A stretch of DNA of 64,000 nt from Spiroplasma endosymbiont of Poecilobothrus nobilitatus (GTDB lineage Bacteria; Bacillota_I; Bacilli_A; Mycoplasmatales; Mycoplasmataceae), in assembly GCF_964030655.1 (NCBI RefSeq), contig NZ_OZ034915.1:682001-746000 (forward strand). Reading direction: 5' to 3'. The notes beneath the pieces are model-generated. The model was not told the origin of the DNA and searched no databases. It was given only the letters and a program-made list of their open reading frames with translations. Both the position numbers and the translations under genes were made by a program. Position 1 is the stretch's first letter. The number at the start of each line of letters is the position of its first letter. Shown here one piece after another: positions 63,431 to 64,000 of the stretch.

Positions 63431-63448
63431 TTTTTAACATTAAATTTT

Positions 63449-64000
63449 TTTAATTTTGTAGAAAACTCTTGATGAAATAAAAAAAATCATCAATATGATA
63501 ACTTTAAAAGAAAATTATATAAACTTTGATAGTAAGAAAAAAGTTGAGGTTTGTAAGTATAACAAACAAAATTAAATTTACTTTTTAATTAAGTAATGCA
63601 AAAAAAATGCTTAATATTAGGTTTTTAGTAAATTTATTTAATTTGTTTAGTTGTTTTTATTTATATTTTTTTGTAAAATATCAACTTTTGTAATGCTATC
63701 TAAACTTTTAATATTGTTATTTAACTTTTTTATACGTTAAAATATAATACCGATGATTGTTGGTTTGGTGTTAAACCTTTATGCTGGTATTTTAATTTTC
63801 AGAGATTTAAATAATTTTGAATGTTCGTGAAACCTAAGCCATGATGATGAATTAATGATTCTTTAAGATTTGATTGTAATTTACTAATTTTATTTAACTT
63901 CCGATAACTAGCATCAGGATTTGTACTAGTTTTAGTTTCTAATAAAATAGAATTTGTTTTTTTTGCTACTAATAAATATAATGGTTGCATGTCAGAAATA
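63449..64000 (-). mobile_element. IS1595-like element copy A9 (partial at window edge)
   Basis: Reverse-oriented right end of family A from TTTAATTTTGTAG at 63449, running off the window. Readable transposase C-terminus includes 'NPDASYRKLNKISKLQSNL'. Interrupted at 63528-63700 by a small element with 8-bp duplication. Confidence 0.88.
63528..63700. mobile_element. MITE-like 173-bp element
   Basis: Flanked by an 8-bp duplication TAAACTTT (63520-63527, 63701-63708) within copy A9. Ends GATAGTAAGAAAAAAGTTGA and, inverted, GATAGCATTACAAAAGTTGA match at 16 of 20 positions. No coding capacity; an internal stem GTTTGT/ACAAAC lies near the left end. These ends differ from those of families A, B and C. 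Confidence 0.85.

What the first reader, a model, noticed from the sequence alone, without database searches (positions are those of the whole stretch)
63528..63700. MITE-like 173-bp element with 8-bp target duplication
Clear 8-bp duplication TAAACTTT and 20-bp imperfect inverted ends, no coding capacity, inserted in an IS1595-like copy. Its ends match none of the three IS families seen here, so its driver transposase lies elsewhere.
Basis: seen in the sequence. Interest (0 to 1): 0.65.

Follow-up and report, generated by a model that had tools for sequence, protein, structure and literature searches.

The report
Mini-transposon derived from a transposable phage
A 173-base gene-less hopping element in a Spiroplasma genome appears to be made of two copies of one end of a transposon-like bacterial virus, so it is probably moved by that virus's transposase rather than by an ordinary insertion sequence.

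Summary
In detail: 63528-63700 is a 173-bp element with 16/20-matched inverted ends and perfect 8-bp duplications (TAAACTTT), inserted in an IS1595-type IS that has 18 uninterrupted copies. It is a true MITE. The genome has 17 full copies (97-100% identical). S. phoeniceum has about 60 copies of 151- and 148-bp relatives. Of 73 catalogued copies, 53 have exact 8-bp duplications.

The MITE's ends are those of a ~16-17 kb Spiroplasma prophage family with terminase- and capsid-like genes. At its right end each carries an Mbov_0401-family (Mutator-like) DDE transposase. Five prophages have perfect 8-bp duplications. The MITE's first 25 bases equal the left end of a prophage in the same genome. Both MITE ends match the phage LEFT end, not its right end, so the MITE looks like a fold-back of two left ends. 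Two fresher left-left fold-backs occur in the same genome; one has an 8-bp duplication.

Inferred, not shown: that the phage transposase moves it. The matching transposase copy in this genome is broken, though S. phoeniceum has intact ones. I found no earlier report of a MITE tied to such a phage.

The parts
63528..63700 (.). 173-bp MITE (non-autonomous, fold-back type)
   Evidence: 17 full copies in the genome
63520..63527 (.). left copy of the 8-bp target duplication TAAACTTT
   Evidence: single in 18 empty copies of the host IS
63701..63708 (.). right copy of the 8-bp target duplication TAAACTTT
63528..63552 (+). left arm GATAGTAAGAAAAAAGTTGAGGTTT, identical over 25 bp to the left end of the prophage at G000:C1:1349753
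63630..63700 (-). right arm, read from 63700 inward: GATAGCATTAC, then homology to the phage LEFT end from position 12 inward (about 60 bp)
   Evidence: z about 7-8 against dinucleotide shuffles
63448..63999 (-). 3' part of the IS1595-like host IS that the MITE interrupts; transposase ORF from 63730, reading off the window's right end (outer IS border approximate)

Best explanation
The element is a MITE descended from the left end of a transposable prophage family of Spiroplasma. The phage (about 16-17 kb) carries at its right end a Mutator-like (p-MULT 5 / Mbov_0401-type) DDE transposase gene, has ends beginning GRTAGT, and duplicates 8 bp of AT-rich target on insertion. A fold-back copying event at an inverted repeat near the phage left end produced a short unit with two left ends head to head. 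Such a unit has what the transposase needs, so it can be moved in trans. Copies then diverged into 173-, 151/152- and 148-bp families and amplified to tens per genome. Shown: element, copies, target duplications, shared ends, prophages with the transposase and the same duplication length, left-left fold-backs. Inferred: that this transposase binds and moves the MITE, and the snap-back origin.
For: (1) Copies and duplications: 17 full copies in the genome; 53 of 73 catalogued copies in two species with exact 8-bp duplications and 6 more of 9-10 bp; precise empty sites in 18 copies of the host IS. (2) Prophages with perfect 8-bp duplications: GTTAACAA, AAAAAAAC, TAATTTCT, AAGAGTTT, ATAATTTT. (3) 25/25 identity of the MITE left end to the left end of a prophage in the same genome (0 control matches). 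(4) Both MITE ends align to the phage left end (z 6.5-12 against the closest ones) and not to its right end (z mostly 0-2). (5) Transposase NF046004 at 226 bits, cut-off 162, with invariant D169, D257, H286, E370. (6) Intermediates: a 152-bp perfect fold-back of 71-bp left-end arms at G000:C1:265193 and a left-left element at G000:C1:907062-908561 with 8-bp duplication AGATTTTT. (7) Both MITE-bearing species carry the phage; S. phoeniceum has 5 full-length transposases and MITEs inside prophages.
Against: No transposition was observed. In the window's own genome the transposase of the end-matching prophage has an in-frame stop and a frameshift, and that prophage lacks a duplication. The outer 11 bp of the MITE right end (GATAGCATTAC) occur at no phage end examined. 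Six of 17 own-genome copies lack a target duplication. Genomes G002, G004, G007 and G009 have the phage but no MITE.
Confidence: 0.78

Rival explanations
1. The MITE descends from the phage left end but was last mobilised by the transposase of another prophage clade in the same genome (the intact 41-48% relatives), recognising the ends in trans.
For: G000 has intact-looking relatives at 752528-753742 (48%) and 144031-145317 (41%) while the end-matching clade is broken there. Copies are 97-100% identical, so amplification was recent.
Against: Those clades have different ends (GGTTGTATGTATTATTTAAGGG, GGTCGTATAAA..., GGTCGCATGG...) that fit the MITE poorly. S. phoeniceum has intact transposases of the matching clade and the largest MITE burst.
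Confidence: 0.2
2. An unseen or lost IS with GATAGCATTAC-type ends drives the MITE, and the resemblance to the phage left end was acquired by recombination.
For: The outer 11 bp of the right end are not found on any phage end seen here.
Against: Searches for both ends with up to 3 mismatches in 14 genomes of the genus gave MITEs, phage ends and coding-sequence chance hits, and no IS; an exact search of 84,980 genomes gave only MITE-bearing S. phoeniceum. Phage homology extends well past the terminal repeat.
Confidence: 0.1
3. The IS3-family (IS150-like) transposase found between MITE halves at G000:873-875 kb is the driver, i.e. that is the autonomous form.
For: An IS3-type OrfA/OrfB pair lies between MITE positions 1-121 and 119-173.
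Against: The MITE is cut at 121 with a 3-bp repeat, as expected of an IS3-family IS inserted into a complete MITE; the IS has its own ends; MITE duplications are 8 bp.
Confidence: 0.02

Closest known systems
Bacterial MITEs derived from insertion sequences
   Same: Short, no coding capacity, inverted ends, uniform target duplication, tens of near-identical copies
   Different: Ends belong to a prophage, not an IS, and both come from the same (left) end, as in fold-back elements
Spiroplasma phage MaM-2019a (OL689226, OL689227; particles from S. poulsonii)
   Same: About 19-kb phage with a right-end UPF0236/COG3328-type transposase, 39-40% identical to P0001; related capsid C-terminus; a left/right end junction with a 5-bp spacer in the particle DNA record
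   Different: Different end sequences and largely different gene order and sequences; no MITE reported
Mycoplasma integrative conjugative elements with p-MULT 5 / CDS22 transposase (PMC3942029, PMC7466169)
   Same: Same transposase family (NF046004), gene next to one inverted repeat, large element
   Different: Here the cargo is phage structural and packaging genes, not conjugation genes; PMC3942029 mentions no MITE
Mu-like transposable phages
   Same: Prophage that uses a DDE transposase and inserts at many sites
   Different: Unrelated transposase and 8-bp duplication; the particle DNA of the relative shows joined ends rather than host DNA at the ends

Membership tests
MITE | short, non-coding, terminal inverted repeats | tested here: met
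   173 bp, no ORF, 16/20 ends
MITE | uniform target-site duplication | tested here: met
   53/73 exact 8 bp
MITE | multiple dispersed, near-identical copies | tested here: met
   17 in G000, about 60 in S. phoeniceum
MITE | shares ends with an autonomous element | tested here: met
   prophages with transposase
MITE | mobilised in trans by that element's transposase | not testable with these tools
   needs an assay
Mbov_0401 / p-MULT 5 element (the parent prophage) | transposase above the family cut-off | tested here: met
   226.5 bits, cut-off 162
Mbov_0401 / p-MULT 5 element (the parent prophage) | DDE triad | tested here: met
   invariant D169, D257, E370 plus H286 in 8 sequences
Mycoplasma ICE | conjugation (type IV secretion) genes | tested here: not met
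   the listed ORFs look phage-like; no conjugation gene was recognised, though most proteins gave no family hit
ISLre2 family | transposase above the NF033529 cut-off | tested here: not met
   90.7 bits, cut-off 200
Prophage (tailed-phage type) | terminase, portal and capsid genes | tested here: inconclusive
   Terminase_3 at 22.5 bits, just under the 23.2 cut-off; capsid C-terminus 63-83% identical to that of phage MaM-2019a; portal assigned only by position and size
Fold-back element | arms are inverted copies of one sequence | tested here: met
   both arms match the phage left end; whole-length hairpin

The most novel reading that the evidence does not exclude
A MITE lineage born repeatedly by snap-back copying at inverted repeats near the left end of a DDE-transposase phage, giving left-left fold-backs that parasitise the phage's transposition (possibly circularising with it) and outnumber the phage several-fold in the genome.
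Probability: 0.45. Interest if true: 0.75.

Novelty: new variant of a known kind. Interest (0 to 1): 0.58.

Why it matters
Most bacterial MITEs are thought to be worn-down insertion sequences. Here the parent appears to be a transposon-like phage, with intermediates in the same genome that show how one phage end can become a self-complementary mini-element. If right, phages can seed genomes with dozens of small insertions that disrupt genes and provide recombination sites, which would help explain the unstable genomes of Spiroplasma. It also turns the question of how MITEs arise into a testable one, with a defined transposase and substrates.

Tried and rejected
IS3-family IS between two MITE halves (873-875 kb) as autonomous form: rejected as a nested insertion (3-bp repeat at the cut). 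End-pattern hits in G002, G003, G005, G006, G007 and G011: coding sequence, chance. Phage and plasmid collections for the MITE DNA: no relevant match. IMG/VR for the ends: none; for the transposase one 6.6-kb contig at 99%, not studied further. PHROGs and Pfam on the phage proteins: almost nothing. Structure prediction was not run, because the family model and conserved residues sufficed. Stretches that read N (withheld) were left alone.

Full report
OBSERVATION. The element is exactly 63528-63700. TAAACTTT flanks it on both sides, the ends match at 16 of 20, and it has no ORF. The ends do not recur in the window within 3 mismatches, where chance expects about none. The host is an IS1595-type IS (PF12762). 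Eighteen other copies of that IS are uninterrupted, with a single TAAACTTT, which proves insertion.

COPIES. A search of the window's own genome (G000, 1,434,273 bp) gave 17 full copies at 97-100% and several fragments. Ten have perfect 8-bp duplications, one has a single mismatch and six have none. It has a 151/152-bp subfamily (48 catalogued) and a 148-bp subfamily (8 catalogued), most with exact 8-bp duplications. Thirty-three of the 48 are identical, so the burst is recent. Targets are AT-rich, roughly AAAWTTTT.

PARENT. The same left end occurs as the left end of a much larger element in G009, G002, G004, G007, G008 and G000. The complete G009 copy runs for about 16.6 kb, from GGTAGTAAGAAAAAAGTTGAGGTTTT to ...AAAACCTCAAAATAATGTATACTACC, between two copies of GTTAACAA. 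Four S. phoeniceum copies of 15.8-17.4 kb also have perfect 8-bp duplications. Genes include a terminase-like protein (weak Terminase_3), a protein whose C-terminus is 63-83% identical to the capsid of Spiroplasma phage MaM-2019a, and a RuvC-like and other phage-like ORFs. At the right end is a 440-aa transposase of the Mbov_0401 ICE family (226.5 bits, cut-off 162; ISLre2 below cut-off) with invariant D169, D257, H286 and E370. This corresponds to the p-MULT 5 group of Mutator-like transposases known from Mycoplasma ICEs (PMC3942029; the correspondence is inferred from the family name). The family is above cut-off in 20 of 60 genomes of the bacterial family.

LINK. In the window's own genome a prophage at 1349753-1367199 starts GATAGTAAGAAAAAAGTTGAGGTTT, identical to the MITE's first 25 bases, including GATAG where other phages have GGTAG. 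Against dinucleotide shuffles, both MITE ends align to phage left ends (z 6.5-8 for the 173-bp MITE and up to 12 for the 151-bp form against the closest ones) but not to right ends (z mostly 0-2). On the right arm the homology starts at position 12 and runs on for about 60 bp, well past the terminal repeat. So the MITE is not a simple internal deletion of the phage: it is two left ends head to head.

INTERMEDIATES. G000:C1:265193-265344 is a perfect hairpin of two 71-bp phage left ends whose turn lies in the phage's terminator hairpin (only one in 14 genomes; no target duplication). G000:C1:907062-908561 is a longer left-left element, with an IS1595-type copy nested in it, and has the 8-bp duplication AGATTTTT. 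This shows that a unit with two left ends can transpose. The junctions sit at inverted repeats in the phage left end, which suggests snap-back copying (inference).

MECHANISM. Most likely the phage transposase recognises the shared left-end sequence at both MITE ends and moves the MITE in trans. Particle DNA of the related phage MaM-2019a (OL689227) contains its right and left ends joined through ATAAT. That fits a circular or concatemeric form; IS256-type transposition goes through circles (PMC3299598, abstract seen). Whether MITEs also form circles is unknown.

LIMITS. The end-matching transposase in G000 has an in-frame stop and a frameshift, so movement there is past, or is driven by another copy. 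The outer 11 bp of the right end have no phage counterpart in the loci examined. No assay exists. Literature searches in the held library found no MITE in Spiroplasma and none tied to such a phage; most subscription papers are not in that library.

VERDICT. Confirmed MITE. The driver is very probably the transposase of a prophage family, not of an IS. Known kind, unusual parent.

Noticed in passing
L019/L020 (G000:C1:873-877 kb): A MITE copy is itself interrupted by an IS3-family IS with a 3-bp repeat, and the same lipase-like gene fragment and MITE end appear twice in opposite orientation, suggesting a local inverted duplication.
   Followed up: partly
G000:C1:755.6-761.2 kb (L161:10125-15665), outside the window: A large ORF with ankyrin-like repeats lies beside an Mbov_0401-type transposase in a prophage-like region; part of it is withheld. 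Only noted.
   Followed up: no
L181 (OL689227) about position 121-141: The phage particle record contains the right and left phage ends joined by 5 bp (ATAAT), pointing to a circular or concatemeric form.
   Followed up: partly
L168:2420-2570 and L169:14528-14678 (S. phoeniceum): MITE copies sit inside prophages of the family that presumably moves them.
   Followed up: no
L241 (G008:C1:1550252-1550326): A 75-bp, almost perfect palindrome made of two MITE/phage left ends, without a target duplication.
   Followed up: partly
L170, L171, L172, L174-L176: A second group of Mbov_0401-type transposase elements with different ends (GGTTGTATGTATTATTTAAGGG or GGTCGTATAAATTATTTTGGGG) is multi-copy in G008 and G009.
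   Followed up: partly
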